The notes beneath the pieces are model-generated. The model was not told the DNA's origin and did not search any database. It was given only the letters and a program-made list of their open reading frames with translations. The position numbers and the translations under genes were made by a program. A stretch of DNA of 42,075 nt from Acidobacteriota bacterium (GTDB lineage: Bacteria; Acidobacteriota; Terriglobia; Bryobacterales; Bryobacteraceae): the NCBI GenBank assembly GCA_025353165.1, contig JANXRE010000138.1:1-42075 (forward strand). Direction: 5' to 3'. Shown here in pieces: positions 27,689 through 41,831 of this stretch. Positions within the stretch are counted from its first letter, which is position 1, and each line of letters begins with the position of its first letter.

Positions 27689-28054
27689 ATGAAACGCATT
27701 TTTGTGTTACTGATCGCGAGCCTTCTAATGACCATGGCCGGCCAGGCGACCGAGTCCGCGAAGCTGCTGAGCAAAAAGGAAGTCCGAAACCTGATCGCGA
27801 ACGCGAACACGCCGGCCGATCACAATAAACTGGCGAACAACTACCGTCTGCAAGCCGAGAAGCTCGATGCCGAGGCAAACGAGCATGCCGAGATGGCGAA
27901 GATATACCGGGAACGGCCCTCCTTAGCGGCCAGCAAGCATCCGATGGGTCCGGACACCGCTCCCCACTGTGAGTATTGGGCGGACAGCCTCCGCAAGGCC
28001 GCTGTCGAAGCGCGCGCACTTTCGACCGCGCACGCCGACATGGCGAAGAAGTAG
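27689..28054 (+). CDS. Small exported helical protein
   Basis: 121 residues, ATG with AAGGAG about 12 bases upstream. A signal peptide (FVLLIASLLMTMAGQA) precedes a helical, charged domain with KLANNYRLQAEKLDAEANEH and a last helix ALSTAHADMAKK. The pattern suggests a periplasmic helical bundle. No known family that I can name. It precedes the decahaem cytochrome gene on the same strand with 109 bases between. Confidence 0.65.
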   Translation: MKRIFVLLIASLLMTMAGQATESAKLLSKKEVRNLIANANTPADHNKLANNYRLQAEKLDAEANEHAEMAKIYRERPSLAASKHPMGPDTAPHCEYWADSLRKAAVEARALSTAHADMAKK

Positions 28055-28163
28055 ACCGGCCAAGTGGAGGGAGCCCGGCTTCCTCCACTCCTCCGGCGGC
28101 GGGATGCGTAGTCCAGCAATGGCTCTGAACAGAGCACATTTTAGGTCAGCCCGGGAGTTCGGT

Positions 28164-30191
28164 ATGACAATAAAAGCTAAGTTTGCTTTCACATTATTAG
28201 CCGGATTGATCGGCCTGGGAGGAGCGCTAACCCTCACCGGCGGTTCAAGGCCAAGATTCACCCCTCACGATAAAGCCTATTATCTACCTCAGAATCAAAT
28301 CGACTTCATTCGGCCCGGCATCGTTTTCAAAATCACTCAGGCGAAGATCGCCTCCGATGGAACCATTACGGCAGCCTTCAAAATCACCGATCCCGACGGG
28401 CTACCGCTGGATCTGAACGGCGTGGCGACGCCCGGTCCCGTCAAAGTAGGCATGACCCTCGCAACCATATACAACGACCATGTCAGCGAAGAATACACGA
28501 ATCACGTAACGCAAACCGTGACCGATCTCAAGACCGGCAACACGGCGACCCAGGGGACCTTGGACAGCGGTGGGGCGTTTCAACAGAACGGCGACGGCCT
28601 CTACTCCTACACTTTCAGCACCAAGATTCCGAACTTCGATCCCACCGCAACCCATTCCGTCGGTGGCCAGGCCGAACGCGACTTGACGGCATTCAAGCTC
28701 GGAGTCCAGGGAATCGATGACGTTTACACCTGGGTTCCAAACGGCGACCCGGTGACAGCGGTGCGCGAAGTGGTCGGCGCGTCCGCGTGCAACCAGTGTC
28801 ACAATACGCTGGCGATGCATGGCGGAGCCCGGCAGAAGGTCGCCTATTGCATCCTCTGCCACAACCCTCAATCGAGCGACCCCTTCACGGGGAATTCGCT
28901 CGACATGTCCGTGATGATCCACAAGATTCACCGCGGTCCCAACCTGCCGAGCGTCAAGGCGGGCGGAAAATATCAACTCGCCGATTACCAAGGCGTTCTC
29001 CGAGACTTTTCGAATACCACCTTCCCGCAGGATATCCGCGAGTGCACAACCTGCCACCAACAGGCCTCGCAGGCACAGCAGTTCAACACCTGTCCGCACG
29101 ATACGGCGTGCGCGGCGTGCCATGACAACGTCAACTTCGCAACCGGAGAGAACCACCCCGGCGGACCGCAACCCGACAGCAATCAATGCGCCACTTGTCA
29201 CATTCCAAAAGGCGAGTCGGAATTCGATGCCTCAATCGTCGGCGCTCACACAATTCCTTCGCGGTCCACTCAACTGCCCGGTGTGGTGTTCGACATTGCG
29301 AAGGTCGATCACGGAACCGCCGGCGGCAACCCGACCGTAACGTTCTCGATCAAAGACAAGTCCGGAAATCCGATACTGCCCTCCGCGATGGACCGGGTAG
29401 CGTTGGTTTTGGCCGGACCCACCACGGACTATCCGGCGGCGATTTCGGAAGATGCGAGCCAGGCGACCGGGAACAACGGTACCTACATGTACACGTTCCA
29501 ATATCAGATTCCAATGTCGGCCACGGGGACCTATACGATCGGCATCGAGGGCACGAAGACCGGCACCCTGAACCCGGGAACAGTGCTTGAAATGTCTCAA
29601 AGGGATGCCGGACTGAACAAGCTCATCTCTTTTTCGGTGGATGGCGGCCCGCTGCAGGCGCGGCGAACCGCGGTAACGACCGAGAATTGCAACGCATGTC
29701 ACAGCAGTCTTTCGGTTCACGGCGGCAATCGAAACCTAGTGGAGATGTGCTTGCTCTGCCACAACCCGAACGCCACGGACGGCGCGGTGAGACCGGCCGC
29801 AAAGAATCCCGCGCAGGCCATCGACTTTGCCGGCATGATTCATAAGATCCACACTGGTGAGAATCTGAGCCGCGACTACACGATCTACGACTATCGCGGA
29901 TCCGTGCACAACTTTATCGGCGTGACCTTCCCAGGCGACCGCCGCGACTGCTCCAAATGTCACGTGAACGGCTCCGAGGCGCTGCCGTTGCCGTCGGACT
30001 TGTTACCGGTAGTCACGCCGCGGGACTATCTGACAACCAGCCCGCCGGCGACCGCCGCGTGCCTGGCTTGCCACACTGGCAAGAGCGTCGCCTCGCACGC
30101 ACTTTCGAACATCTCTCCGTTCGGCGAGAGTTGCGATGTCTGTCATGGACCGGATGCCGAATTCTCCGTCGCTCGCGTGCATGCACGTTAA
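28164..30191 (+). CDS. Decahaem c-type cytochrome, OmcA/MtrC family
   Basis: 675 residues from the ATG at 28164 (GGGAG 7 bases upstream), with an N-terminal export signal (FAFTLLAGLIGLGGALTLTG). Ten CxxCH haem sites are present: CNQCH, CILCH, CTTCH, CAACH, CATCH, CNACH, CLLCH, CSKCH, CLACH and CDVCH. They fall in two five-haem groups separated by beta domains, the layout of outer-surface OmcA/MtrC cytochromes that deliver electrons to metals or other extracellular acceptors. No lipobox Cys is seen, so anchoring is unclear. The frame is open upstream, but only this start gives a signal. Confidence 0.93.
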   Translation: MTIKAKFAFTLLAGLIGLGGALTLTGGSRPRFTPHDKAYYLPQNQIDFIRPGIVFKITQAKIASDGTITAAFKITDPDGLPLDLNGVATPGPVKVGMTLATIYNDHVSEEYTNHVTQTVTDLKTGNTATQGTLDSGGAFQQNGDGLYSYTFSTKIPNFDPTATHSVGGQAERDLTAFKLGVQGIDDVYTWVPNGDPVTAVREVVGASACNQCHNTLAMHGGARQKVAYCILCHNPQSSDPFTGNSLDMSVMIHKIHRGPNLPSVKAGGKYQLADYQGVLRDFSNTTFPQDIRECTTCHQQASQAQQFNTCPHDTACAACHDNVNFATGENHPGGPQPDSNQCATCHIPKGESEFDASIVGAHTIPSRSTQLPGVVFDIAKVDHGTAGGNPTVTFSIKDKSGNPILPSAMDRVALVLAGPTTDYPAAISEDASQATGNNGTYMYTFQYQIPMSATGTYTIGIEGTKTGTLNPGTVLEMSQRDAGLNKLISFSVDGGPLQARRTAVTTENCNACHSSLSVHGGNRNLVEMCLLCHNPNATDGAVRPAAKNPAQAIDFAGMIHKIHTGENLSRDYTIYDYRGSVHNFIGVTFPGDRRDCSKCHVNGSEALPLPSDLLPVVTPRDYLTTSPPATAACLACHTGKSVASHALSNISPFGESCDVCHGPDAEFSVARVHAR

Positions 30192-30220
30192 ATGAACTCG
30201 AATCGCATAAAGGTTTCAAA

Positions 30221-32230
30221 ATGAAAGCTGCTTCCTCATTCGCGCTTGTTATTTTTGGGGGCTTGGCTGGGATTTCGCCGTCATTCGCCCAGATGACCGT
30301 TCTCAACGCCGCCTCCTTCGCTCCGGCGCAACCGATCGCGCCGGGTTCCTTCGTCGCGGCGTTCGGGCAGAATCTCTGCTCCCAGACGATGACCGGCAAT
30401 CTGGATGCGCGGGGCCAGTATCCGGTAACGCTGGGAAGCTGTTCCGTAACCGTGAATGGCGCTCCCGCGATGATACAGTACGCCGCTCCGGGACAGATCA
30501 ACTTCATCATGCCCGTCGGGGTAGGCTCGGGCCAGGCCGAGGTGACGGTCCACAACGGATCTCAGACGATGACAGGCGCCGCCCTGACCGGCCCCGCCGG
30601 ACCCGGGATGTTCGCGCTGAACGGCATGGGGATGGGGGAAGGCGCGATGTTGAATGGCGAAGTCTGGCGGACTCCGCCGTTCAGCGTCTCCACCAACGAC
30701 TTCCCAACGGTGGTGGCAATCTATGTCACCGGCATGGACACGTCAACGACGCCAACCGTCACGCTGGGAGGCATGACCGCGAACGTCGCGTGGTCCGGAA
30801 ATATTCCCAGCTACCCCGGACTCCAGCAGATCAACATCTGGCTCCCGCGCAGCATGGCCGGCGCCGGGCGCGTTCCGGTGATGGTGACATCGGGCGGGCA
30901 AGCCAGCAACATCACCTTCATGCACATTCTCCCCACGACGGCCATGATGCAGGGAATGCCCGGATGGGGACAGGGCATGATGGTCAGCGAGAACATGCCG
31001 CGCGGCCACGAGCTCAGCTACATGGCGTTCAACGGGTCCAACAATACCGCCCTGGTGACGGACGAGAACGACGACGTGGTGCGCGTAGTCTCGATGGCGT
31101 CCAACTCCACCACCGCGACGATCACGCTGCCGGGCGGATCTCGGGCTCAGGCGCTGGCGGTAAATGCGGCGGGAAGCATGGCGGCTGTCGCCCTCAGCGC
31201 GCAAGCCGCCGTCGCGCTCATCGATCTCTCGCAGAACAAAGTGATCTCGACCATCGGCACGGGCTATTACCCGAGCCGGATGGCGTTCTCGGGATCGACC
31301 CTGCTGGTTACCAACAGCGGAAGCGGAACCGTCTCGGTAATCGACACCACCAGCCGGACGATCGTTCAGACGGTGAAGCTCGCGGTTGGAGTGAGCGGGA
31401 TCGCGGCCGCCGGCAACACCGCGGTCGTAGCCAACATGCAGGCCGGCTCTCTTTCCATCATCGAGCTGACCAGTTACAGCGTGTCGAATATTGCGTTGCC
31501 GGCGGGATCGAGGCCGCGCGAAGTCGCCATATCCGCGCAGGCGAATAAAGCCGTCATCACAACCCCGATGTCGAACGGCTTCCTGATCCTCGATCTCGGA
31601 TCGAAAGCCCTGACGCAGGCCGTGACAAACGGAATGGGCCCTGGCGCGGTGGCGATCGGCGGAAACACGGTTTACATCGCGAATCAAATGACCGCGAGCG
31701 TTACGGTATTCGATCTGGCCGCGGCCGCCGCCGTGAAGACCTTCCCGGTCGATCCAGGCCCAATGGCGCTTGCGGTCAATGCATCGAACAACCAATTGCT
31801 GGTTTTGGCGGAAGGAACAGGCACTCTGGATGTGGTCGATTTGGGAAGCGACGCCGTCGTTTCGCGAATCGACGCGGGAAGCACCGAGCGTCAGGGCCAG
31901 TTCACGATGCCGCTGATTTCGTCCATCGCGCCCGTCAGCGCGGCGGCTGGGAGCACCTTCGCCTTGACGATCGCGGGATCGGGTTTTCAGGGTGTCCAGG
32001 GTATCGAGTTCCACCTGGCGACAAGCGGCGTAATGATGGGCGGCGGCATGGGGCAAGAGGACTCGAACATTAAAGTCTCCAACGTCCAGTCGAGTTCCGA
32101 CGGCACGCAAATCACCGCTTCCGTCCAGATTCTTCCCGCCGCCGTTGCCGGCGCCCGCCAGATCCGCCTCGAAACGGCTTACGGCGAAATCATGGGGATG
32201 ATGACCAACTCGCTGTTCACCGTCAAGTAG
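30221..32230 (+). CDS. Secreted YVTN-type beta-propeller protein with Solibacter-type domain
   Basis: 669 residues from the ATG at 30221. After a signal peptide (FALVIFGGLAGISPSFA) residues 25-235 resemble the TIGR03437 type (LNAASFAPAQPIAPGSFVAA; IQYAAPGQINFIMPVG). The middle (about 290-560) is a run of YVTN-like propeller blades such as LLVTNSGSGTVSVIDTTSRT and NTVYIANQMTASVTVFDLAA. An IPT/TIG-like domain ends the protein. Met- and Gly-rich stretches (GMGMGEGAM; MMQGMPGWGQGMM) are unusual. It follows the decahaem gene by 29 bases and is probably co-transcribed. Confidence 0.85.
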   Translation: MKAASSFALVIFGGLAGISPSFAQMTVLNAASFAPAQPIAPGSFVAAFGQNLCSQTMTGNLDARGQYPVTLGSCSVTVNGAPAMIQYAAPGQINFIMPVGVGSGQAEVTVHNGSQTMTGAALTGPAGPGMFALNGMGMGEGAMLNGEVWRTPPFSVSTNDFPTVVAIYVTGMDTSTTPTVTLGGMTANVAWSGNIPSYPGLQQINIWLPRSMAGAGRVPVMVTSGGQASNITFMHILPTTAMMQGMPGWGQGMMVSENMPRGHELSYMAFNGSNNTALVTDENDDVVRVVSMASNSTTATITLPGGSRAQALAVNAAGSMAAVALSAQAAVALIDLSQNKVISTIGTGYYPSRMAFSGSTLLVTNSGSGTVSVIDTTSRTIVQTVKLAVGVSGIAAAGNTAVVANMQAGSLSIIELTSYSVSNIALPAGSRPREVAISAQANKAVITTPMSNGFLILDLGSKALTQAVTNGMGPGAVAIGGNTVYIANQMTASVTVFDLAAAAAVKTFPVDPGPMALAVNASNNQLLVLAEGTGTLDVVDLGSDAVVSRIDAGSTERQGQFTMPLISSIAPVSAAAGSTFALTIAGSGFQGVQGIEFHLATSGVMMGGGMGQEDSNIKVSNVQSSSDGTQITASVQILPAAVAGARQIRLETAYGEIMGMMTNSLFTVK

Positions 32231-32237
32231 CTACTTG
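32224..32237. other. Palindrome spanning two abutting stop codons
   Basis: CAAGTAGCTACTTG is a perfect 14-base palindrome. Its centre is the join between the TAG of the propeller gene (32228-32230) and the TAG of the minus-strand cytochrome gene (32231-32233). No T-run; too short to be a strong terminator. Confidence 0.6.
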
Positions 32238-34273
32238 GCGTGCACGCGGCTAACGGAAAAGGCGCCCTTCGCCCCGTGACAGACATCGCAGCTCTCGCCC
32301 AGCATAGTCGTGTTGGACAAGGCATGGGAATGCGCCGACGTCGTGTCGTGGCACCCGAGGCAGGCAGCCGACGCCTTCCCTCGCGGGTTCGGAATCTCGT
32401 TGGGATTGAAGACAGCCAACAGGCCGGACGGCAGCGGAAGTTGTTCCGAACCGTTCACGTGGCAGCCGTCGCAGTTCCCGCGATCGTCCGGGTAGCGGAC
32501 GATGCCGTAGCCGTCCTCGACACTGTTGACACCGTAAATGCTCCGCCACTGCCGGTTCTCGCCGGTGTGAATCTTGTGCGCGAGCACCGCGAAATCCATC
32601 GACTCGGCGGGCATCTGGTCCGCCGGCCGCCAGGCGTGGTCGGTCTCGTTCGGGTTGTGGCACAAGATGCAATAGTCGAACTGGTTGCGATTGCCGGCAT
32701 GAGGCGTATCGACGTGGCAGGAGAGGCACTTCGGGCCGGCGTGACAGGAGGCGCACTTGTCATTCGTAAAAACCACCCGGCGCGGCTGGACAGCCGATCC
32801 GTCCACGGAGAAATCGAACTTGACGTTGCGGATGAAGTCGTAGGCCACGACTTCCTTCTTGGTCCCCGGCAAGAGAGTGACGGGCCGGGATCCTTCGACT
32901 CCCAAGGTGTACGTCCCGCCCGCGCCGGCTGGAAGGGCCGTCTGGAAGGTATAGGATAAGGTGCCGTCCGAACCGGCCTGCGCGCCGGTGGCGTCTTCCA
33001 GGAACGAGGAAGCATAGTCGGTAGTCGGACCCGCAATCACCAGGTTCAACCGATCCATCTGGGAAGGCGGGATCGGATTCCCGGCCTTGTCCTGAAGCGA
33101 GAAAATCGCGGTGGGCCGCTTCCCCGGACCTGCATTCTCCACGCGCAGGAGCCGCGCCACTACGCCCGGCAAGGAGGGCGACAGATTCGGAACCGTATGC
33201 GCGCCGATGATGGACGCATCGAAATCCAACTCACCTTTTGGAATATGGCACCCCGCGCACTGATTGTCGTCTATTTGCGGGAGAGACAGATGATTCTCCC
33301 CGGTCGCAAAGTTCACGGTATCGTGGCATGAGCCGCAGGCAGCGCGGCTGGGATTCTTTAGCCAGGCGTCGGCTTGCGCGGGCCCCGCCTCATGACAGGA
33401 CTGACAGTTGCGGCCATCCGCCACCGACTCGAAGATCGAGTAGTCCTGAACGCCCGTGAAGTCGTGCACCGAGATCTGAAAAGTGCCCCCGGCCTGTACG
33501 CTGTCGATGTCGCTGCCGGTGTGGATCTTGTGCATGAGCACCGGAAAGTCCAGCGTCTGGCCGGTATTGAGGTCCTCGTTTTGAGGCGTGTGGCAGAGCA
33601 CGCAGAGCGCAACGTCGCGGCGTTTCCCTTCGTGGTAGTTCAGTTGTCCGTGGCATTTATTGCAGGAAGAGGTTTCGATGATGTCCCGAACGTTGGTGAC
33701 CGCCCCGCCATTCGGCACGAAGGTGTAAACGTCATTGCTGTACTGCGTGCCAAGATCGAACAGCGTCACGTCGCGGGACGCAAACGCGCCGATGGTGTGC
33801 GTGGCCGCCCGGTCGTAGTTTCCCGGCGCCTTCGTTGCGAATGCGTAATCGTATTGGCCGTCGCCGATCTTGCTCATCGTGCCGCCGATGTCGGCGTGCG
33901 GCAGATTGCCGCTGTGGATGGTAGTCGGCGGGCCCACGAAATGCGTGGTGTAAGCCACGTACTGCCGCTTGCCCGTGGGGATGTAGGCGGCCACGAAATT
34001 CGCCGCTACCGGTCCGGGCGTGGTGATCCCGGCCAGATCGAGCGGCAAGCCCATGAGATCCGTCACCTGGAAGCGAACGTGGATGCTTCCATCGGGCCAG
34101 ATGGAGGCGGATTGAATTTTGAGACTCAGCCCGGGACGGACAAAGCTCACCAGGTTGGGATCGGCGTAGTAGGCCTTGTCATGCTTGGTGAAAGTCCGGG
34201 GCGGGGTTTGGGACGATAGAGCGGAACCGATGAATCCGAGAGCCAACGCCATGCGCGGAAGACGGCTGGACAT
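32231..34273 (-). CDS. Undecahaem c-type cytochrome, OmcA/MtrC/UndA family
   Basis: 680 residues with a signal sequence (MALALGFIGSALSSQTPP). Eleven CxxCH sites: CNKCH, CVLCH, CQSCH, CGSCH, CAGCH, CASCH, CLSCH, CILCH, CDGCH, CLGCH and CDVCH. It is clearly a paralogue of the ten-haem protein (both end GESCDVCHG ... FSVSRVHAK or similar). The extra haem is an insertion: CASCHAGPKCLSCH at 32755-32714 where the paralogue has one site. An eleven-haem form, UndA, is known in Shewanella. The ATG has GGAGG just upstream. It is convergent with the propeller gene, sharing abutting stops. Confidence 0.93.
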   Translation of the reverse strand: MSSRLPRMALALGFIGSALSSQTPPRTFTKHDKAYYADPNLVSFVRPGLSLKIQSASIWPDGSIHVRFQVTDLMGLPLDLAGITTPGPVAANFVAAYIPTGKRQYVAYTTHFVGPPTTIHSGNLPHADIGGTMSKIGDGQYDYAFATKAPGNYDRAATHTIGAFASRDVTLFDLGTQYSNDVYTFVPNGGAVTNVRDIIETSSCNKCHGQLNYHEGKRRDVALCVLCHTPQNEDLNTGQTLDFPVLMHKIHTGSDIDSVQAGGTFQISVHDFTGVQDYSIFESVADGRNCQSCHEAGPAQADAWLKNPSRAACGSCHDTVNFATGENHLSLPQIDDNQCAGCHIPKGELDFDASIIGAHTVPNLSPSLPGVVARLLRVENAGPGKRPTAIFSLQDKAGNPIPPSQMDRLNLVIAGPTTDYASSFLEDATGAQAGSDGTLSYTFQTALPAGAGGTYTLGVEGSRPVTLLPGTKKEVVAYDFIRNVKFDFSVDGSAVQPRRVVFTNDKCASCHAGPKCLSCHVDTPHAGNRNQFDYCILCHNPNETDHAWRPADQMPAESMDFAVLAHKIHTGENRQWRSIYGVNSVEDGYGIVRYPDDRGNCDGCHVNGSEQLPLPSGLLAVFNPNEIPNPRGKASAACLGCHDTTSAHSHALSNTTMLGESCDVCHGAKGAFSVSRVHAK

Positions 34274-34448: not shown

Positions 34449-36881
34449 ATGCGCGACTTCCCGCAGCACGTCCGATTCGCCCTGCGGTTCATTCGCCGCA
34501 ATCCCGGTTTCGCGGTCGTCGCCATCTGCGCCCTGGGGCTCGGCATCGGGGCGAACTCCGCCATGTTCAGCGTGGTCGACGCGCTGCTCCTCCGCCCCCT
34601 GCCCTATCCCGACCCGGACCGGATCGGCATCGTGTGGGAGAAGAGCGCCGGCCAGGGCTGGGCCCGCATCAACCCATCCGGCCCGGACTACGTGGACTGG
34701 AAGGAGCACAGCAAAACCATCGACGAGTTCGCGCTTCTCGAACCCGGAAGCGGAACGGTCACCGGCTTCGGCGAGCCGCAGCAGGTTCCGGGCATGCGGG
34801 TCTCTACCAACTTCCTGCACCTGCTGGGGGTGAAGCCGCTTCTCGGCCGCGATTTCCGTCCCGGCGAGGGATTCAAGGATCGCGTAGTCATCCTTGCGCA
34901 CGGGATGTGGATGCGCTGGACCGGCGGCGATCCCGGCATCGTGGGACGGCGCGTCATTACGGACGGCATCCCGTACACCATCGTCGGCGTGCTGCCCGCG
35001 GGCGCATGGTTCCCGGTCCCCTCCGACGTCCTCGTGCCCTGGGAAGACAGCGACCTTCGGAACAGGAACCGCATGGAGCACAACTTGGCGGTCCTCGCCA
35101 AGCGCAAGCCCGCGGTGTCGTGGAGCGAGGCCAGCGCGGAGCTGGATACCATCCAGCGCCGCATCGGCGACGCCTTTCCGAGAATGAAAGGCTGGGGCGC
35201 TTATGTCTCGCCGTTCCAGTCCTGGATGGTGCAGGGCGCGCGGCCCGGCCTGCTGATGCTACTCGGCGCAGTCGGACTGGTGCTGCTGATCGCGTGCACG
35301 AACATCGCGAACCTGCTGCTGGCGCGCGCCGTCGCGCGAGGCCGGGAAGTGGCCATCCGCTCCGCTCTCGGCGCATCCCGGCGCAACCTTGTGCAGCAGT
35401 TTCTCACCGAGGCGATGATACTCGGGCTGATCGGCGGAGCCTTGGGGATGCTGCTCGCCGTGTGGGGAATCGACCTGCTCGACAAGATCGTCCCGGCCTC
35501 TATTCGCATCCCGGATTCCAACGCGGATGTGATGCGCCCGCCGCTCACGATCGACGGCGCCATGCTGCTCTTCACGTTCGCGGTATCCCTCGTTACCGGC
35601 CTCATTTTCGGCCTCGCGCCGGCCTTGGCCGCAACTCGCGGCGACATTCAAAAGACGCTGCGGGACGGCGGGCGCGGCGCTTCCGCAAGTTCGCAATCGA
35701 AGTGGCTGCGCGATGGCCTCGTGGTCTCGGAAATCGGACTCGCCCTGGTGCTGCTGATCGCCGCCAGTATGACGATCAAGAGTATTTGGAAGATGCAGCA
35801 GGTGAACCCGGGCTTCTCCGCGGACCACTTACTGGTGCTGGAAACCGAACTGCCGACGGACTCCAAGTACAAGCAGGACGCGGAGCAGGTCACCTTCTTC
35901 CGCCGCGTGCTCGACCAGATTCACCAGGTACCCGGGGTGAGCGCGGCGGCCATCGGCGCTTCGATTCCGATGGACGAGCAAGATCAGAAAACCGATTTCG
36001 TGATCGAAGGCCGCCCGCTGCCCCCCTCCGGACAACTGCTGCCCGCCAACTACCGGATGGTTAGCGAGGAGTACTTCTCCGCGCTGCGAATTCCATTGAA
36101 GCGCGGCCGTCTCTTGAACGAGCGGGACGACGCCGATCGTCCGCGTGTCCTGCTGATCGACGAAGAGATGGCATCGCGGTACTGGCCCGCGGGAGTGGAG
36201 GGCGCGAAAGACCCCATCGGACAGCGAATCCGCTTCGGAGGGACAACGGCTGAGATCGTCGGCATCGTCGGTTCGGTGAAGAACGCGGGTCTCGACAAGA
36301 AGGCGGAGCCGACCATCTACGTCAGCTATCGCCAGAATCCCGATCCGCACGTGCGAATCCTGGTGCGCCACGGCGCGCCGGGATCCATCGTGAACTCGGT
36401 GAAGGCCGCCGTATATGCGGTGGACAAGGATCAGCCGGTTTTCAAGATCCGAACCATGGACGACATCGTAACGGGATCGCAGCGGAGTTCCCGGTTCGCT
36501 TCCTGGCTGCTAGCGGCTTTTGCCCTGGTTGCGCTCGCTCTCGCGTCGATCGGAATCTACGGTGTGATCTCGTATGCGGTGGCGCAGCGCCGGAACGAAA
36601 TCGGAATCCGGATCGCACTGGGGGCGGCGTCGCGAGACGTGCTGCGAATGGTAGTCGGGCAGGGCGCGATCCTGGCCGGCATTGGAATTGCGGCCGGCCT
36701 CGCGGCGGCGCTGGCAATCACGCGGCTGCTTTCGTCGCTACTGTTCGGCGTGAGCGCGGCGGACCCATGGATCCTCGGCGGAACGGCGCTGGTACTGGGC
36801 GCGGTGGCGATTCTCGCAAGCTACCTGCCGGCCCGGCGCGCGTCGAAAATCGACCCAGCCATTTCGCTGCGATACGAATAG
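34449..36881 (+). CDS. ABC-type permease, acidobacterial duplicated orphan permease (ADOP) type
   Basis: 810 residues. It begins HVRFALRFIRRNPGFAVVAI, CALGLGIGANSAMFSVVDAL, which is the MacB/FtsX-like N-terminal block seen in the ADOP family. It holds two copies of the FtsX-type permease core: one around LLIACTNIANLLLARAVARG, REVAIRSALGASRRNLVQQF, and one near the C terminus (ISYAVAQRRNEIGIRIALGA). Periplasmic MacB-like domains lie between. No ATPase gene is adjacent, as is usual for this family. The transported substrate is unknown; macrolide or peptide efflux is a weak guess. Confidence 0.9.
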   Translation: MRDFPQHVRFALRFIRRNPGFAVVAICALGLGIGANSAMFSVVDALLLRPLPYPDPDRIGIVWEKSAGQGWARINPSGPDYVDWKEHSKTIDEFALLEPGSGTVTGFGEPQQVPGMRVSTNFLHLLGVKPLLGRDFRPGEGFKDRVVILAHGMWMRWTGGDPGIVGRRVITDGIPYTIVGVLPAGAWFPVPSDVLVPWEDSDLRNRNRMEHNLAVLAKRKPAVSWSEASAELDTIQRRIGDAFPRMKGWGAYVSPFQSWMVQGARPGLLMLLGAVGLVLLIACTNIANLLLARAVARGREVAIRSALGASRRNLVQQFLTEAMILGLIGGALGMLLAVWGIDLLDKIVPASIRIPDSNADVMRPPLTIDGAMLLFTFAVSLVTGLIFGLAPALAATRGDIQKTLRDGGRGASASSQSKWLRDGLVVSEIGLALVLLIAASMTIKSIWKMQQVNPGFSADHLLVLETELPTDSKYKQDAEQVTFFRRVLDQIHQVPGVSAAAIGASIPMDEQDQKTDFVIEGRPLPPSGQLLPANYRMVSEEYFSALRIPLKRGRLLNERDDADRPRVLLIDEEMASRYWPAGVEGAKDPIGQRIRFGGTTAEIVGIVGSVKNAGLDKKAEPTIYVSYRQNPDPHVRILVRHGAPGSIVNSVKAAVYAVDKDQPVFKIRTMDDIVTGSQRSSRFASWLLAAFALVALALASIGIYGVISYAVAQRRNEIGIRIALGAASRDVLRMVVGQGAILAGIGIAAGLAAALAITRLLSSLLFGVSAADPWILGGTALVLGAVAILASYLPARRASKIDPAISLRYE

Positions 36882-37264
36882 GCGTTGGGGGCGTATCCCT
36901 TTGACTCAGCCATTCGTGCTGGGTCGTGAACGACGATTTCGGAATAGCTACGCGGCGCAATTCGCGGGTGCACCGCGACGGCCAGGAGGTTGATGGGGTC
37001 GCGCCTCGCCGGACCCAAGCCGACTTCTCGGTCCCTATCCTGCTGAATAGCCGAATGCCGACAATACTGCCTAAGCCGGGCAGTTCCGCCGGCAAGTCGT
37101 TCCTCGTTAAATTGACGCGTTGCCGTCGCGGAATTGAAGCTGACGCCGTGGTCCTAATCTGGTCGATTACGAATCGGCATAAATTGGGATACTTCGGTGA
37201 AGTACAGAAACAAGGCCCAACCCAGACGGCTCAACAATTTGCGGCACGACAGAAAATAATCAGC
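36882..37264. other. Intergenic stretch with no supported gene
   Basis: Short frames on both strands here lack recognisable motifs and ribosome binding sites. The only structured item is a 15-base odd palindrome TACTTCGGTGAAGTA at 37190-37204, function unknown. The region marks the change from GC-rich chromosomal style to the less GC-rich defence cassette. Confidence 0.5.
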
Positions 37265-37265
37265 A

Positions 37266-37285
37266 TACTGCTCTTTTGAGCAGTA
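37266..37285 (+). promoter_or_regulatory. LexA-type SOS box
   Basis: TACTGCTCTTTTGAGCAGTA keeps TACTG-N10-CAGTA, the outer part of the E. coli-type LexA operator (consensus CTGT-N8-ACAG); the inner T/A pair is C/G here. The inverted repeat extends to ATACTGCTC/GAGCAGTAT (37265-37286) with a 4-base centre. It ends 12 bases before the lexA-like ATG, where bound repressor would block transcription. This indicates autoregulation. Confidence 0.8.
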
Positions 37286-37297
37286 TCATGAGAGTTC

Positions 37298-37915
37298 ATG
37301 CCATCGCTGCCCACGGAGCGTCAGCAGCAAATTGCGTCATTCCTCCATTCCGAATTGCGCAAGCGTGGTAGCGCGCCGACCCAGCGTGAGATCGCTGAAC
37401 GCTTTGGGTTCGCCAGCCTGAATTCCGTTCGGTCCCACCTGCGGCTGATGGAGAAAAAAGGAATGCTCAACCGCCTTCCAGGTAAGGCTCGGGGGCTAAA
37501 GCTGAAATATCGCCCGCCCGTGGGCATCCCTCTGCTTGGACACGTCGCTGCAGGTAATCCACAGATCGCACTTCAAGATTCTGACGAGATTGTCCCGGTA
37601 TCGCCGGAGCTGTTTCCGGGGTCCGAATTGTTCGCCCTCCGAGTGAGAGGCGAAAGCATGAAAAATGCCGGGATTCTGCCAGGCGATATCGCCGTGATGA
37701 ATCGTCAGAGCGAGGTGGCGGACGGCGAGATCGCGGCGGTTCTGCTCGACGATGAAGCGACACTCAAATACCTCTATCGGCCCAATGGGACGGTCATACT
37801 GCGCGGAGCGAATCCTGCCTTTCCCGACATCGTCATTCGCTCCAATGAACAGCGGTCCGTTCAGATTCTAGGCAAATACGTCGGTCTCATTCGGAACCAG
37901 AGGAGCCCACGCTGA
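37298..37915 (+). CDS. LexA-type transcriptional repressor with S24 self-cleavage domain
   Basis: 205 residues. The N-terminal winged helix (APTQREIAERFGFASLNSVR, SHLRLMEKKGML) matches LexA. The C-terminal domain has the cleavage site Ala85-Gly86 (HVAAGN), the catalytic Ser120 in RGESMKNAGILPGD, and Lys157 in DDEATLKYLYR, each within one residue of E. coli LexA numbering. Such repressors self-cleave when RecA is activated by DNA damage. It is preceded by a LexA-type box and its stop overlaps the methyltransferase ATG by one base (TGATG). It could be the cell's main LexA or a dedicated regulator of the cassette. Confidence 0.92.
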   Translation: MPSLPTERQQQIASFLHSELRKRGSAPTQREIAERFGFASLNSVRSHLRLMEKKGMLNRLPGKARGLKLKYRPPVGIPLLGHVAAGNPQIALQDSDEIVPVSPELFPGSELFALRVRGESMKNAGILPGDIAVMNRQSEVADGEIAAVLLDDEATLKYLYRPNGTVILRGANPAFPDIVIRSNEQRSVQILGKYVGLIRNQRSPR

Positions 37916-40900
37916 TGGCGTCCACACCTCCCAATTCCACGCTGCCGCTGACCCAGCGCCTGGCGGCCTACGGCTGTTCGGCCGTTATTAGGCTTGACGA
38001 AAAGCTCACTTCAGCAGGACAGCTTGACTACCTTGATTTGCTACCGAAGCAAAGCAACCACACACCGCTACTGACCGCGGTCGCCGAGCATCAAGGGGCC
38101 GCATTGCTCTATCTCGTGGACGCGACGAGCAGCGACGTGAGGAGCGACGCCGCTTCACTGGCTGCGGCGCGTAGACAGCTCGCAAATCGTAGCGATCCCG
38201 CTTGGCTTGGTGTTCTACGACCCGGCTCCCTAGAGATATTCCCGATTAGCTTTCAGGAGACTCGGGATTCACAGCCGGTGAGGATCATTGAAGAGCGCAG
38301 CCAGACGGCACCGCTGTTCTTCCAGAGCCTGGTCCATGGCACTTTTGAAGAGAATCACCGGCTGCATGGCACCGACTACGTATTCAACAAAATCTTCGAC
38401 CTGCTAACCCGCATGACGAACGACTTCGTCCCGACAGAAGGCAAGGGCAAACTGGAAGCGCTGGAAGTGCTGTCAATGGCAGGTCGTGCTCTGTTTTTCC
38501 GCTTTCTTATCGACCGTCGAATTGTACTGGAAAACGAGCGTGACCAAATCTGTTCGGCAGCGGACGAACTGAAAGATGCCTTCTCCTCCGCAGACAAGGC
38601 TGCGCGAACCTCCGCATGGCTCGATGCGACATTTAACGGCGACTTTCTTCCTCTTATTGACGAATCGATTCCTGCCGACGATCGGGAGGCTCGCGAGGCC
38701 GAGTACCTTCGTTTCTTCAGGCGCACCGAGCGGCTGGCAGGAAAGCGGGTCTTCGTTCACCTCCATGCAATTCTTCACGGCTGGCGCGCAACTGGAGAAA
38801 CCGTCCAGACTGAACTTGACTGGGACGACTTCGACTTCGCCCATATACCCGTTGGTGTGCTTAGTCAGGTATATGAGAGTTTCAGTCACCGCGCCGACCC
38901 GCTTACGGCACGCGACACCAGCGTTCATTACACTCCTCGCATGATCGCTGGATTAATGGTCGAGCAAGCATTCGCCGCCACCGAACAGAAAGCGAGCGCC
39001 AGAGTTCTCGACAGCTCATGTGGTGCAGGCATTTTCCTGGTGCTTGCGTTCCGTCGTCTTGTCCGCGAGCATTGGATTGGCGACCAGCGGCCAAAAACTG
39101 CGGTTATCCAGAGCATTCTTTACAACCAACTTCGGGGCTTTGACATCAGCGAGTCCGCGTTGCGCCTCGCAGCCCTGGCACTCTACATAACCGCGATCGA
39201 ACTCAACGGTAGTCCACGCCCGCCGCAGGCGCTCAAATTCCCGCGCAATCTGCGAGGCGAGGTGCTTCATCGCTTCGGTGCTGACGAGGAGAGCGGCAGG
39301 TTCCCGCTTGGCAGCCTCGGCCCGGACGTTTCTAGAGACTTCGACCGGAACTTCGATATTGTGATTGGCAACCCGCCATGGACACGATTACGCGACAACA
39401 AGGATGACCGCGACAGCGGCGACGACGAAAAGGGCAAAAAGTCGGCGACTGATGAGTTGAATAAGATTTTCAGTGCGCTTGGGCAGCGAGTACTTGCCGA
39501 TCGCGGATTGAGGGATATCGCGGCAGGATACCAAAACCCTGACAAAAATCCCGACTTGCCGTTCTTGTGGCGGGCGATGGAATGGGCGAAGGAAGGTGGA
39601 GTCATAGCTTTGGCCTTGCCGGCGAGACTTTTTGGGCGGACCTCGGGGACAGGTCTTGAAGCCTGGCGGGCAGTCCTGAAAAGCGTAGAAGTGACCGGCC
39701 TGATAAATGGGGCAGATTTGCGGTGGTCGGCAGTTTGGAAGGACGTAAAGTTCCCGTTCTGCGTCCTCTTCGCTCGCAACAAGAAGCCCGGCCCCGACCA
39801 CAGCTTCTACTACGCGGCACCCGTCAATGAGCCCGAACTGAACGGACACGCACGCTTCCGGATTGATTATGACGCAGCCCAGGCCCTTAGCGTCGAGCGA
39901 GTCGAGAAACAGCCGTGGATTCTTAAGACGCTAGCCTTCGGAACCTGGTTGGATGTACAGCTGATGGAGACCCTCTCGGGGACCAACAACCAAACGTTGG
40001 CGAGCCGATGGGCTGCATGGGACAAGGGAGGCGCTAAGACCGGTAGGGGATATGACCGCTCACCCGGCCTATCTTAGAAATTCGTGGATTTTCTTGCTGA
40101 CCTTCCAGTGTTTGAGCCTCCAACTCAGACGTTGCTCGAAGCTAGGCAGGCGAAGACATACGGGGAATTGTTCGGCACAAACTCCGAAGGGCAAAGCAGT
40201 GCTCACATGCCCCGTCGAAAGGAACTCTATCAATCCCCGCTGGTCATCATCGCTAAGTCTCCGGGCGATGACCCTAAAGCACCCCGTGCCTATGTTTCGG
40301 ATCACCCGGTTGCCTTCTCCCAAATCTACTACGGCTATTCCTGCGCTGGTCACCCGGATGCGGAGACGCTCGCTGCGCTGATCCATCTGCTGGCGCACTC
40401 CACTCTCTTCGACTATTTCTGCTTGATGACCAGTAGCCAGAGCGGATTCGATCGGCAAATGTTTAACAAGCGAGAATTCGATGCGCTTCCGTTCCGTTAC
40501 ATTTCCGATCTGCCCTCTACAACCAAGACAACCATTCGTAGTCTCTCGCATCGATTGCAACACGACGCCGCCGGACCGCGGACGGAGTTAAACGAGTTTA
40601 TCTTCCGGCTGTACGGTCTCGATCCAGCCGATGTCCAGGTCGCCGAGGACACCCTATTCTCCGCAGCCTCCTATCGGAAGGCGGGAAAAGCGGCTCTGGA
40701 AAGGACGACGCGCGAAACGCGCGAACCTTTCATAAATACATTGCGCAATGAACTGGAACCGTATTTCGACGTGTGCGGCGAGCATGCCGCAGTGATCGAG
40801 GCGGAGTTTCAGCCGAACAATTGGCGTCAACCGTGGTTCTTCCTTTCTGTCGGTCGCGCGAACACCTCGGTTCCAATCAATCCCGCCCTGATGCGGAAGG

Positions 40901-41082
40901 CGATGGACACAGCGAACCAGCGTGGTTGCAGCCGCATTATTGTCCACGCACCGGGTAAACGCGGGCTTCTGATGGGTCTCTTGAATCAGCGCCGCTGGTG
41001 GACAGTAACCCGCGCCCGACTCTGCGCACAACACATCATCCGCGAACGACTGGGCGCGTGCGGGCTTGCGGAGCATGCGTGA
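37915..41082 (+). pseudogene. Type IIG-like N6-adenine DNA methyltransferase interrupted by an in-frame amber codon
   Basis: The frame from 37915 continues without shift to 41082 except for one TAG at 40075-40077, so it would be 1055 residues if read through. Part one (720 residues) has the SAM motif I VLDSSCGAGIF (364-374) preceded by HYTPR, and the catalytic NPPW at 486-489. Part two (from a GTG at 40084, 332 residues) resembles the target-recognition region that follows the catalytic domain in type IIG enzymes (SDHPVAFSQIYYGYSCAGHP). The catalytic part is intact; the split puts target recognition on a second peptide. Translation could restart at the GTG two codons after the stop. I label it interrupted rather than dead. 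Confidence 0.75.
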
Positions 41083-41831
41083 GAGTGCAAGGGACTGCTG
41101 GATTCTTCACGCTTGGCGTTCCACCGGACCAATATGACCTCCCCCATCCGCGCCTGGGCTTGCCAGTTATTCTCTTTCTTCGACGTGTCCTGTTGAGAGC
41201 GTTCGCTAAGCTCCGAGATCGCGGTTTTCCGTTAGCCACTGAACGCGAAGATAGCGTCACCGAACAGCTCTTCAATGTACTTGAGAACGACCTTCGTCAA
41301 ACCGGTGAAATCGGCGGGTTCAACCCTATCTTCTATGAACGCGTTGTCCGGCATGCTCAAGTCACGAACTATAACGGCCAAAAGCTTGCGAAAACGCCAG
41401 ATTTGTCGTTCAAGCTCCGCGACGCGGGCGCGGAACGGCGTCCCGTGGTTTCATCCCATGATGCTCTCTTTGTGGAGTGCAAGCCTGTTGATGCAGGCCA
41501 TGCTGCCGGGACCGCGTATTGCGACGATGGCCTCCTCGGATTTGTGAATGGCGACTATGCGTGGGCGATGCAGGAAGCCATGATGCTGGCCTATGTCCGC
41601 AATGGCAGAACCATTGCGGAACACCTGACTCCTGCGATGGCCGCGTCCAACCGAAGAGCGTCGCTCAGAATTGTCCGTCCACTCGAAGTCTGCCCAGGGC
41701 TTGCTGCGGCACCCTGTGCCGAGGCAGAGTCCGTCCATCTCACCCAGCACCGTCGCAATTTCCCATGGCCCGATGGCAAAGGCTTGGCAACCGACATTAC
41801 CGTGTATCACCTCTGGCATCGATGTTCGTAG
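41079..41831 (+). CDS. PD-(D/E)XK-type restriction endonuclease
   Basis: About 250 residues from a GTG at 41079 that overlaps the upstream stop by 4 bases (GTGA). The nuclease core is visible: an acidic helix (REDSVTEQLFNVLENDL), then Pro107-Asp108 in KTPDLSFKL, and Glu133-x-Lys135 in ALFVECKPVD, which is the PD-(D/E)XK pattern of many type II restriction enzymes. The open frame begins at 40998, but that overlaps the methyltransferase and lacks a start site. It is the likely cutting partner of the upstream methyltransferase; the recognition site is unknown. Confidence 0.75.
   Translation: MRVQGTAGFFTLGVPPDQYDLPHPRLGLPVILFLRRVLLRAFAKLRDRGFPLATEREDSVTEQLFNVLENDLRQTGEIGGFNPIFYERVVRHAQVTNYNGQKLAKTPDLSFKLRDAGAERRPVVSSHDALFVECKPVDAGHAAGTAYCDDGLLGFVNGDYAWAMQEAMMLAYVRNGRTIAEHLTPAMAASNRRASLRIVRPLEVCPGLAAAPCAEAESVHLTQHRRNFPWPDGKGLATDITVYHLWHRCS

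What the first reader, a model, noticed from the sequence alone, without database searches (positions are those of the whole stretch)
37266..41831. LexA-controlled restriction-modification cassette: SOS box, LexA-type repressor, methyltransferase, PD-(D/E)XK nuclease
Three coding units are tightly coupled: repressor and methyltransferase overlap by 1 base (TGATG at 37913-37917), methyltransferase and nuclease by 4 bases (GTGA at 41079-41082). The only regulatory signal upstream is an E. coli-type LexA box 12 bases before the repressor ATG. R-M systems are usually controlled by small C proteins or by the methylase itself; placing the whole operon under a self-cleaving LexA-type repressor would make modification and restriction rise on DNA damage. 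The regulator's cleavage site, Ser120 and Lys157 are all intact. This is the best candidate for an undescribed system in the window.
Basis: partly seen in the sequence, partly recalled or inferred. Interest (0 to 1): 0.85.

Follow-up and report, generated by a model that had tools for sequence, protein, structure and literature searches.

The report
LexA-headed restriction-modification operon
A bacterial DNA-cutting defence module appears to carry its own private copy of LexA, the switch that normally senses DNA damage, and the same arrangement recurs in distantly related bacteria, although the copy in this window has a broken methylase gene.

Summary
The cassette is real: palindrome (37265-37286), LexA-family repressor (37298-37915), N6-adenine methyltransferase (37915-41082) and PD-(D/E)XK nuclease (41079-41831), overlapping. 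The architecture recurs: of 82 related loci fetched, 24 have an intact LexA gene just upstream, in Acidobacteria, Verrucomicrobia, Deltaproteobacteria, alpha- and gammaproteobacteria; the nuclease follows in 78 of 79 loci where it could be seen. Of 25 cassette LexAs (window included), 22 form one clade apart from 23 LexAs elsewhere in the same genomes, and their divergence tracks that of the methyltransferase (Mantel 0.81). TACTG-N10-CAGTA precedes 19 of 25 cassette lexA genes (at most 1 mismatch; 0.06 expected) and 0 of 23 others. Self-cleavage residues are invariant. Best reading: a dedicated LexA with a private operator represses a restriction-modification operon and releases it when RecA filaments form. 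Family identity, operator conservation and co-inheritance are well supported; binding, damage induction and restriction are inferred. Nine literature searches listed no such system. New variant of a known kind.

The parts
37231..37260 (+). weak sigma-70-like promoter match just upstream of the operator; may be chance
   Evidence: 1 match found, shuffle mean 1.8
37265..37286 (.). operator: 22-base palindrome ATACTGCTC-TTTT-GAGCAGTAT (core TACTG-N10-CAGTA at 37266-37285)
   Evidence: same motif before 19 of 25 cassette lexA genes at no more than 1 mismatch; strict form TACTGY-N8-RCAGTA once in this genome
37298..37915 (+). LexA-family repressor, 205 aa; Ala85-Gly86 at 37550-37555, Ser120 at 37655-37657, Lys157 at 37766-37768
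37915..41082 (+). N6-adenine DNA methyltransferase with target-recognition part, 1055 codons plus final stop, interrupted in frame; NPPW motif at 39370-39381
37915..40077 (+). open part of the methyltransferase as it stands (720 aa), with the catalytic domain
40075..40077 (+). in-frame TAG; 7 of 7 aligned near relatives have Gln here
40084..41082 (+). rest of the methyltransferase frame (332 aa from a GTG), most of the target-recognition part; a restart here is possible but untested
41079..41831 (+). PD-(D/E)XK nuclease, 250 aa; Asp108 at 41400-41402, Glu133 at 41475-41477, Lys135 at 41481-41483

Best explanation
A mobile two-gene restriction-modification module (large N6-adenine methyltransferase plus a separate PD-(D/E)XK nuclease) led by a dedicated LexA-family autorepressor with its own operator. 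LexA binds TACTG-N10-CAGTA before its own gene and keeps the operon low. When RecA filaments form on single-stranded DNA (damage, phage replication, or cutting by the system itself), LexA cuts itself at Ala85-Gly86 and all three genes rise. On entry into a new cell, which lacks this repressor, the operon would start unrepressed and then settle. Shown by comparison: family identity, gene coupling, operator conservation, a site confined to the cassette in this genome in its strict form, co-inheritance. Inferred: binding, RecA-stimulated cleavage, restriction. In this genome the methyltransferase frame is interrupted, so the system is probably recently disabled.
For: Intact LexA gene directly upstream of the methyltransferase in 24 of 82 fetched loci; in 21 of the 24 the two genes overlap, abut or lie 2 bases apart. 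Cleavage pair, Ser and Lys invariant in 26 of 26 aligned LexAs (25 cassette, 1 chromosomal). Operator at <=1 mismatch before 19 of 25 cassette lexA genes (0.06 expected by shuffling) and 0 of 23 lexA genes elsewhere. 22 of 25 cassette LexAs in one clade without any of the 23 others (93/89). LexA and methyltransferase identities correlate over 22 loci (Mantel Spearman 0.81, 0 of 2000 permutations as high). Strict operator once in G000, at the cassette. Genome has a further LexA and RecA. Nuclease has invariant E57, D108, E133, K135 in 59 sequences and a confident model near restriction enzymes, Z 7.6 and 6.4.
Against: The copy here has a stop in the methyltransferase. Most fetched modules have no LexA (58 of 82 lack an intact one; 5 of those 58 have too little upstream sequence to tell). 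6 of 25 operators deviate by 2 or more mismatches. The LexA clade falls just short of the starred support level. The looser pattern TACTG-N10-CAGTA has a second exact site in G000, on C87, and G398 and G414 have strict sites away from the cassette. No binding, induction or restriction data.
Confidence: 0.68

Rival explanations
1. The LexA is only a homeostatic or timing repressor, like the small C proteins of other restriction-modification systems: it limits operon expression and delays nuclease build-up, and damage sensing plays no part.
For: The same slot holds regulators without an S24 domain in other modules: XRE-type genes in L012 and L013, HTH_31 in 7 and HTH_3 in 5 of 56 hand-picked upstream ORFs, and an unnamed family of about 151 aa in L011 and 9 others at 50% identity or more. 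These suggest that repression, not damage sensing, is the shared need.
Against: Ala-Gly, Ser and Lys are invariant in 25 of 25 cassette LexAs although many of these share only 30-47% identity with the window protein; a plain repressor would be free to lose them. Remnants L037 and L046 lost the whole protease part rather than keeping a non-cleavable repressor.
Confidence: 0.2
2. The enzyme pair is not a restriction system but a DNA-damage tool (repair or DNA processing) that happens to include a methyltransferase, which is why LexA controls it.
For: LexA control is typical of repair genes (recalled); none of 59 nuclease members matches PADLOC or NCBIfam at E<=0.01, and Pfam matches at E<=0.1 are scattered singles or pairs; no recognition site is known.
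Against: The methyltransferase fold is that of sequence-specific modification enzymes (CamA, BrxX, MmeI, DrdV); the nearest structural neighbours of the nuclease are restriction enzymes, at middling Z; modules sit on plasmids near toxin-antitoxin, transposase or restriction genes.
Confidence: 0.08
3. The LexA is an unrelated neighbour, simply a second lexA of the genome that landed beside a restriction-modification pair.
For: In 58 of 82 loci the pair has no intact LexA upstream; three LexAs (L025, L053, L083) branch away from the main clade, so recruitment happened more than once.
Against: 24 loci share the order with overlapping or nearly overlapping genes, 22 LexAs form one clade and diverge with the methyltransferase.
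Confidence: 0.04

Closest known systems
lexA2-imuA-imuB-imuC mutagenesis cassette (PMC3901139, passages read)
   Same: A dedicated LexA leads and directly controls its own operon beside another LexA regulon in the same cell (Pseudomonas putida).
   Different: Downstream genes are mutagenic polymerase genes; here they are a DNA methyltransferase and a nuclease.
CapH+CapP, CapW/BrxR and CapK+CapS regulators of immune operons (PMC13373217, passages)
   Same: A regulator beside an immune operon releases it on DNA damage or single-stranded DNA.
   Different: None of these is a self-cleaving LexA; CapH needs the separate protease CapP, CapW is a WYL protein, CapK+CapS work by phosphorylation. The passages name CBASS, BREX and others; CapK+CapS are also found beside restriction-modification systems.
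RptR repressor of Type I restriction-modification islands (PMC12255303, abstract and outline)
   Same: A small regulator dedicated to a restriction-modification locus with a conserved binding site.
   Different: Different protein and site (TAGCTA); the abstract names no damage response.
C-protein controlled Type II restriction-modification systems (recalled; review PMC3874152, passages only)
   Same: Regulator, methyltransferase and nuclease in one locus.
   Different: C proteins are small XRE-type regulators (recalled); this one is a LexA with winged helix and S24 protease. The review passages mention LexA for the SOS response and for symE only.
Type IIG enzymes and BREX PglX/BrxX
   Same: Methyltransferase fold and target-recognition part.
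   Different: Type IIG enzymes fuse nuclease and methyltransferase, BREX has further genes (recalled); here the nuclease is a separate gene.

Membership tests
LexA repressor (TIGR00498) | score over the curated family cut-off | tested here: met
   178.6 bits against 110.95
LexA repressor (TIGR00498) | LexA DNA-binding domain followed by S24 peptidase domain | tested here: met
   PF01726 at 6-66 and PF00717 at 78-195
LexA repressor (TIGR00498) | Ala-Gly cleavage pair and Ser/Lys dyad | tested here: met
   Ala85-Gly86, Ser120, Lys157, invariant in 26 of 26
LexA repressor (TIGR00498) | conserved operator before its own gene | tested here: met
   19 of 25 at <=1 mismatch, 0.06 expected
LexA repressor (TIGR00498) | RecA-stimulated self-cleavage and derepression | not testable with these tools
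   needs protein or reporter assays; recA is present
Restriction-modification system with separate methyltransferase and nuclease (Type II-like) | DNA methyltransferase with catalytic motif and target-recognition part | tested here: met
   N6_Mtase and Eco57I; NPPW; fold like CamA, BrxX, MmeI; but the frame is interrupted in the window
Restriction-modification system with separate methyltransferase and nuclease (Type II-like) | adjacent nuclease with PD-(D/E)XK residues and fold | tested here: met
   invariant E57, D108, E133, K135 in 59; model pLDDT 93.2; OkrAI Z 7.6, BamHI Z 6.4, no significant Foldseek hit
Restriction-modification system with separate methyltransferase and nuclease (Type II-like) | both enzymes act on the same site and unmodified DNA is cut | not testable with these tools
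   needs methylome and restriction assays
C-protein controlled restriction-modification | small XRE-type C protein in the operon | tested here: not met
   the regulator in the window is a LexA
Type IIG restriction enzyme | active nuclease fused to the methyltransferase | tested here: inconclusive
   PADLOC Type IIG models match part of the chain (301-495); N-terminal region aligns within DrdV but no catalytic triad seen by eye
BREX (PglX) | PglX family score over the cut-off | tested here: not met
   BREX PglX models 23-28 bits against cut-offs of 400-900
lexA2-imuABC cassette | imuA, imuB and imuC behind lexA | tested here: not met
   the genes behind lexA are a methyltransferase and a nuclease
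CapH+CapP or CapW/BrxR | XRE repressor plus separate metallopeptidase, or WYL-domain repressor | tested here: not met
   Pfam of the regulator shows LexA_DNA_bind and Peptidase_S24, no WYL domain

The most novel reading that the evidence does not exclude
A family of 'restriction LexAs' has turned the SOS switch into a private, self-amplifying immune circuit: cutting of unmodified invading DNA yields RecA filaments, which cleave the cassette LexA and raise nuclease and methyltransferase together, largely without touching the host's own SOS genes because the operator is confined to the cassette. The module keeps its enzymes but swaps its sensor (LexA, XRE, an unnamed 151-aa family) as it moves between phyla.
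Probability: 0.38. Interest if true: 0.85.

Novelty: new variant of a known kind. Interest (0 to 1): 0.7.

Why it matters
How restriction systems are tuned during infection is poorly known. Damage-sensing regulators are described for CBASS, BREX and similar immune operons, but a dedicated, self-cleaving LexA as lead gene of a restriction-modification operon was not listed in the nine searches made here. Because the LexA clade, its operator and the enzymes travel together through several phyla, the idea that restriction is coupled to RecA signalling becomes testable with one reporter and one non-cleavable mutant. It also gives a clean case of regulator swapping in front of a fixed enzyme pair, and a nuclease family without a clear model in Pfam, NCBIfam or PADLOC.

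Tried and rejected
Gave little: the nuclease profile against PDB sequences (best E 0.18) and Foldseek (none at E<=0.001); only VIA-align gave restriction-enzyme neighbours, all with Z under 8. None of 59 nuclease members matches PADLOC or NCBIfam at E<=0.01; Pfam matches at E<=0.1 are 6 unrelated families, 1-2 members each. No methyltransferase relative in 50,697 phage records; 2 in viral contigs. In 396 genomes of the phylum, 5 besides the own genome hold a distant methyltransferase match and none a nuclease match, so the cassette is rare among sampled kin.

Set aside: a transcription terminator instead of an operator. The terminator scan flags the palindrome on the minus strand, but across relatives the outer TACTG/CAGTA is kept while the inner ten bases vary and often do not pair. 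An active fused nuclease in the N-terminal part of the methyltransferase: not seen by eye, left inconclusive. Whether the nuclease takes its specificity from the methyltransferase: in 40 loci nuclease identity follows the catalytic part (Spearman 0.80) more closely than the presumed target-recognition part (0.67), and L048/L053 have nucleases 70% but recognition parts 41% identical; only suggestive, since pairs are not independent.

Literature: nine searches (one search was on LexA motifs) listed no LexA-headed restriction-modification operon. I saw listings, one abstract with outline and passages of four papers. The library lacks most subscription papers.

Rows dropped or limited: L046 (lexA remnant) is not in the LexA alignment or tree; L026, L028, L045, L086 and L093 have under 700 bases upstream; the 56 upstream ORFs were picked by hand; the genome scan kept the best 80 of 101 relatives, so proportions lean towards loci like the window's; the methyltransferase tree is a FastTree tree (26 LexA and 58 other rows, at least 9 changes); in the Mantel test L030 and L049 enter with part of the methyltransferase; in 8 of the 25 operator tests the position used is the conserved beginning of the protein, not a start codon; start codons behind the gene spacings were chosen by rule; the count of 16 of 24 genomes was made by hand from contig positions.
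Full report
WHAT IS THERE. The window is a whole contig (C44, 42,075 bases) of a 5.77-Mb genome in 200 contigs. At its right end stand three genes on the + strand. The first, 37298-37915, is a LexA-family repressor of 205 aa with LexA DNA-binding and S24 peptidase domains and 178.6 bits to TIGR00498, cut-off 110.95. Its stop codon overlaps the next start by one base. The second, 37915-41082, encodes an N6-adenine DNA methyltransferase (Pfam Eco57I and N6_Mtase). The third, 41079-41831, overlaps by four bases and encodes a 250-aa protein with no match at E<=1 in Pfam, NCBIfam or PADLOC. Eleven bases before the lexA ATG ends a perfect palindrome, ATACTGCTC-TTTT-GAGCAGTAT (37265-37286).

The methyltransferase is not open: a TAG stands at 40075-40077, codon 721 of 1056; the genome search also counts one TAG. 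All 7 near relatives aligned have glutamine there, and the gene before and after the stop is about as constrained as in relatives (dN/dS 0.07-0.10 in the pairs with the window; pN/pS is slightly higher after the stop in every pair, relatives included). So this is a recent nonsense mutation, a strain mixture or an assembly error, not old decay. If real, the product keeps the catalytic domain but loses most of the target-recognition part, which I place by eye at about residues 690-905 of the L016 model. A restart at GTG 40084 is possible but untested. Split methyltransferase frames also occur in L030, L046 and L091 of the 82 fetched loci and in plasmid locus L014.

THE MODULE ELSEWHERE. Five plasmid records hold a methyltransferase relative over at least 80% of its length, and the same five hold the nuclease relative; four of them were looked at, plus one more distant plasmid. 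A scan of one genome for each of 84,980 species, with a four-sequence alignment, gave 101 relatives, the best 80 of which were kept; viral contigs gave 2, phage records none. In these 82 loci the nuclease is detected in 78; of the four misses three (L043, L049, L052) are contig ends, leaving one real absence, viral contig L096. The nuclease family has invariant E57, D108, E133 and K135 in 59 aligned sequences and a confident model (pLDDT 93.2, pTM 0.91). Foldseek finds nothing significant; VIA-align puts OkrAI (Z 7.6, rmsd 3.6, 144 aligned) and BamHI (Z 6.4, rmsd 3.8, 142 aligned) first, middling scores that agree with the PD-(D/E)XK residues. The methyltransferase model resembles CamA (Z 27.3), BrxX (24.7), MmeI (23.3) and DrdV (23.2).

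THE REGULATOR SLOT. An intact LexA-like gene lies directly upstream of the methyltransferase in 24 of the 82 loci, or 24 of the 77 with at least 700 bases upstream; two more, L037 and L046, keep only pieces of the DNA-binding part. Record titles name Acidobacteria, Verrucomicrobia, Deltaproteobacteria including Geobacter and Malonomonas, Bradyrhizobium and gammaproteobacteria. Of the 24, 12 overlap the methyltransferase by 4 bases, 6 by 1 base, 1 abuts, 2 lie 2 bases apart and 3 lie 35, 129 and 147 bases apart. Elsewhere the slot holds XRE-type genes (L012, L013) or an unnamed family of about 151 aa (L011 and 9 others at 50% identity or more). Among 56 hand-picked upstream ORFs only HTH_31 (7) and HTH_3 (5) recur, and several loci closest to the window, such as L020-L024, show no clear regulator.

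IS THE LEXA DEDICATED? Five results say so. First, 16 of 24 genomes with such a locus (25 loci, L046 included) hold another LexA above the cut-off outside it; most are draft genomes, so the other 8 prove little. G000 also has one. Second, in a tree of 25 cassette LexAs and 23 LexAs from elsewhere in these genomes, 22 cassette LexAs form one clade without any of the others (bootstrap 93, SH-aLRT 89, just under the starred level); L025, L053 and L083 lie apart and look like separate recruitments. Third, LexA and methyltransferase identities over the 22 loci correlate (Mantel Spearman 0.81, 0 of 2000 permutations as high; 0.79 within 13 deltaproteobacterial-type loci). Fourth, TACTG-N10-CAGTA lies in the 110 bases upstream of 19 of 25 cassette lexA genes at no more than one mismatch, 0.06 expected from dinucleotide shuffles (23 of 25 at two, 0.94 expected), and of 0 of 23 other lexA genes (4 of 23 at two). 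Many deltaproteobacterial loci have two overlapping boxes 15 bases apart. Fifth, the strict form TACTGY-N8-RCAGTA occurs once in G000, at the cassette, and once, at the cassette, in 5 of 13 other genomes searched; G398 has three sites, one at its cassette, G414 two away from its cassettes, and 6 none, their boxes deviating from the strict form; the reversed control pattern gave 30 sites in the 14 genomes against 11. The looser TACTG-N10-CAGTA has two exact sites in G000, the cassette and C87, and 53 at up to one mismatch against 160 for the control.

HOW IT MOST LIKELY WORKS. Shown by comparison: a LexA with a conserved site of its own leads a set of overlapping genes for two DNA-acting enzymes and is inherited with them. 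From established knowledge of LexA (recalled): such a protein represses from its site and cuts itself at Ala-Gly when RecA filaments form; the residues needed are invariant in 26 of 26 aligned sequences, and G000 has recA. Inferred: restriction makes breaks, breaks load RecA, and the operon rises further; both enzymes rise together because they share a promoter. A promoter-like match lies at 37231-37260, but one match is no more than chance gives. The main rival, a C-protein-like timer without damage sensing, cannot be excluded by sequence.

AGAINST THE READING. 58 of 82 modules lack an intact LexA gene (5 of these cannot be judged); 6 of 25 operators have two or more mismatches; the clade is not starred; nothing here measures binding, induction or restriction; and the copy in the window is probably broken.

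WHAT IS KNOWN. A LexA-headed, self-regulated operon is known for lexA2-imuABC (PMC3901139, passages). Damage-responsive regulators of immune operons include CapW/BrxR, CapH+CapP and CapK+CapS (PMC13373217, passages; the word LexA does not occur in that paper). RptR represses Type I systems (PMC12255303, abstract and outline). A 2013 review of restriction-modification regulation mentions LexA twice, for the SOS response and for symE (PMC3874152, passages). A paper on BrxR-family regulators of defence islands does not mention LexA (PMC9122601, passages). Nine searches listed no LexA-led restriction-modification operon. Hence: new variant of a known kind.

Noticed in passing
27969-30191 (+) and 32231-34273 (-): Two MtrC/MtrF-like outer-membrane multihaem cytochromes (PF22113) face each other around an ORF with weak beta-propeller matches (29957-32230); possible extracellular electron transfer genes.
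   Followed up: partly
34449-36881 (+): MacB/FtsX-type ABC permease directly upstream of the cassette; no defence gene was recognised between it and lexA.
   Followed up: partly
L037:1585-1960 and L046:990-1265: Two cassettes keep pieces of the LexA DNA-binding part but have lost the protease part: apparent decay of the regulator while the enzyme genes remain.
   Followed up: partly
L011:4561-5016: A regulator-like family of about 151 aa without a Pfam match in L011 heads the same enzyme pair; upstream ORFs of L057-L060, L062-L064, L066 and L079 are 50-70% identical to it.
   Followed up: partly
L044:4363-8746 and L087:4342-8719; L039 and L045: One Geobacter genome (G414) carries two LexA cassettes; L039 and L045 bear the title of one Desulfobacteraceae isolate, the upstream part of L045 being cut off.
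   Followed up: no
38017-38424: N-terminal part of the methyltransferase (residues about 35-170) aligns within Type IIG chains such as DrdV but shows no nuclease triad by eye; perhaps a dead nuclease domain replaced by the separate nuclease.
   Followed up: partly
L096:4992-8081: A viral contig carries the methyltransferase without a detectable nuclease.
   Followed up: no
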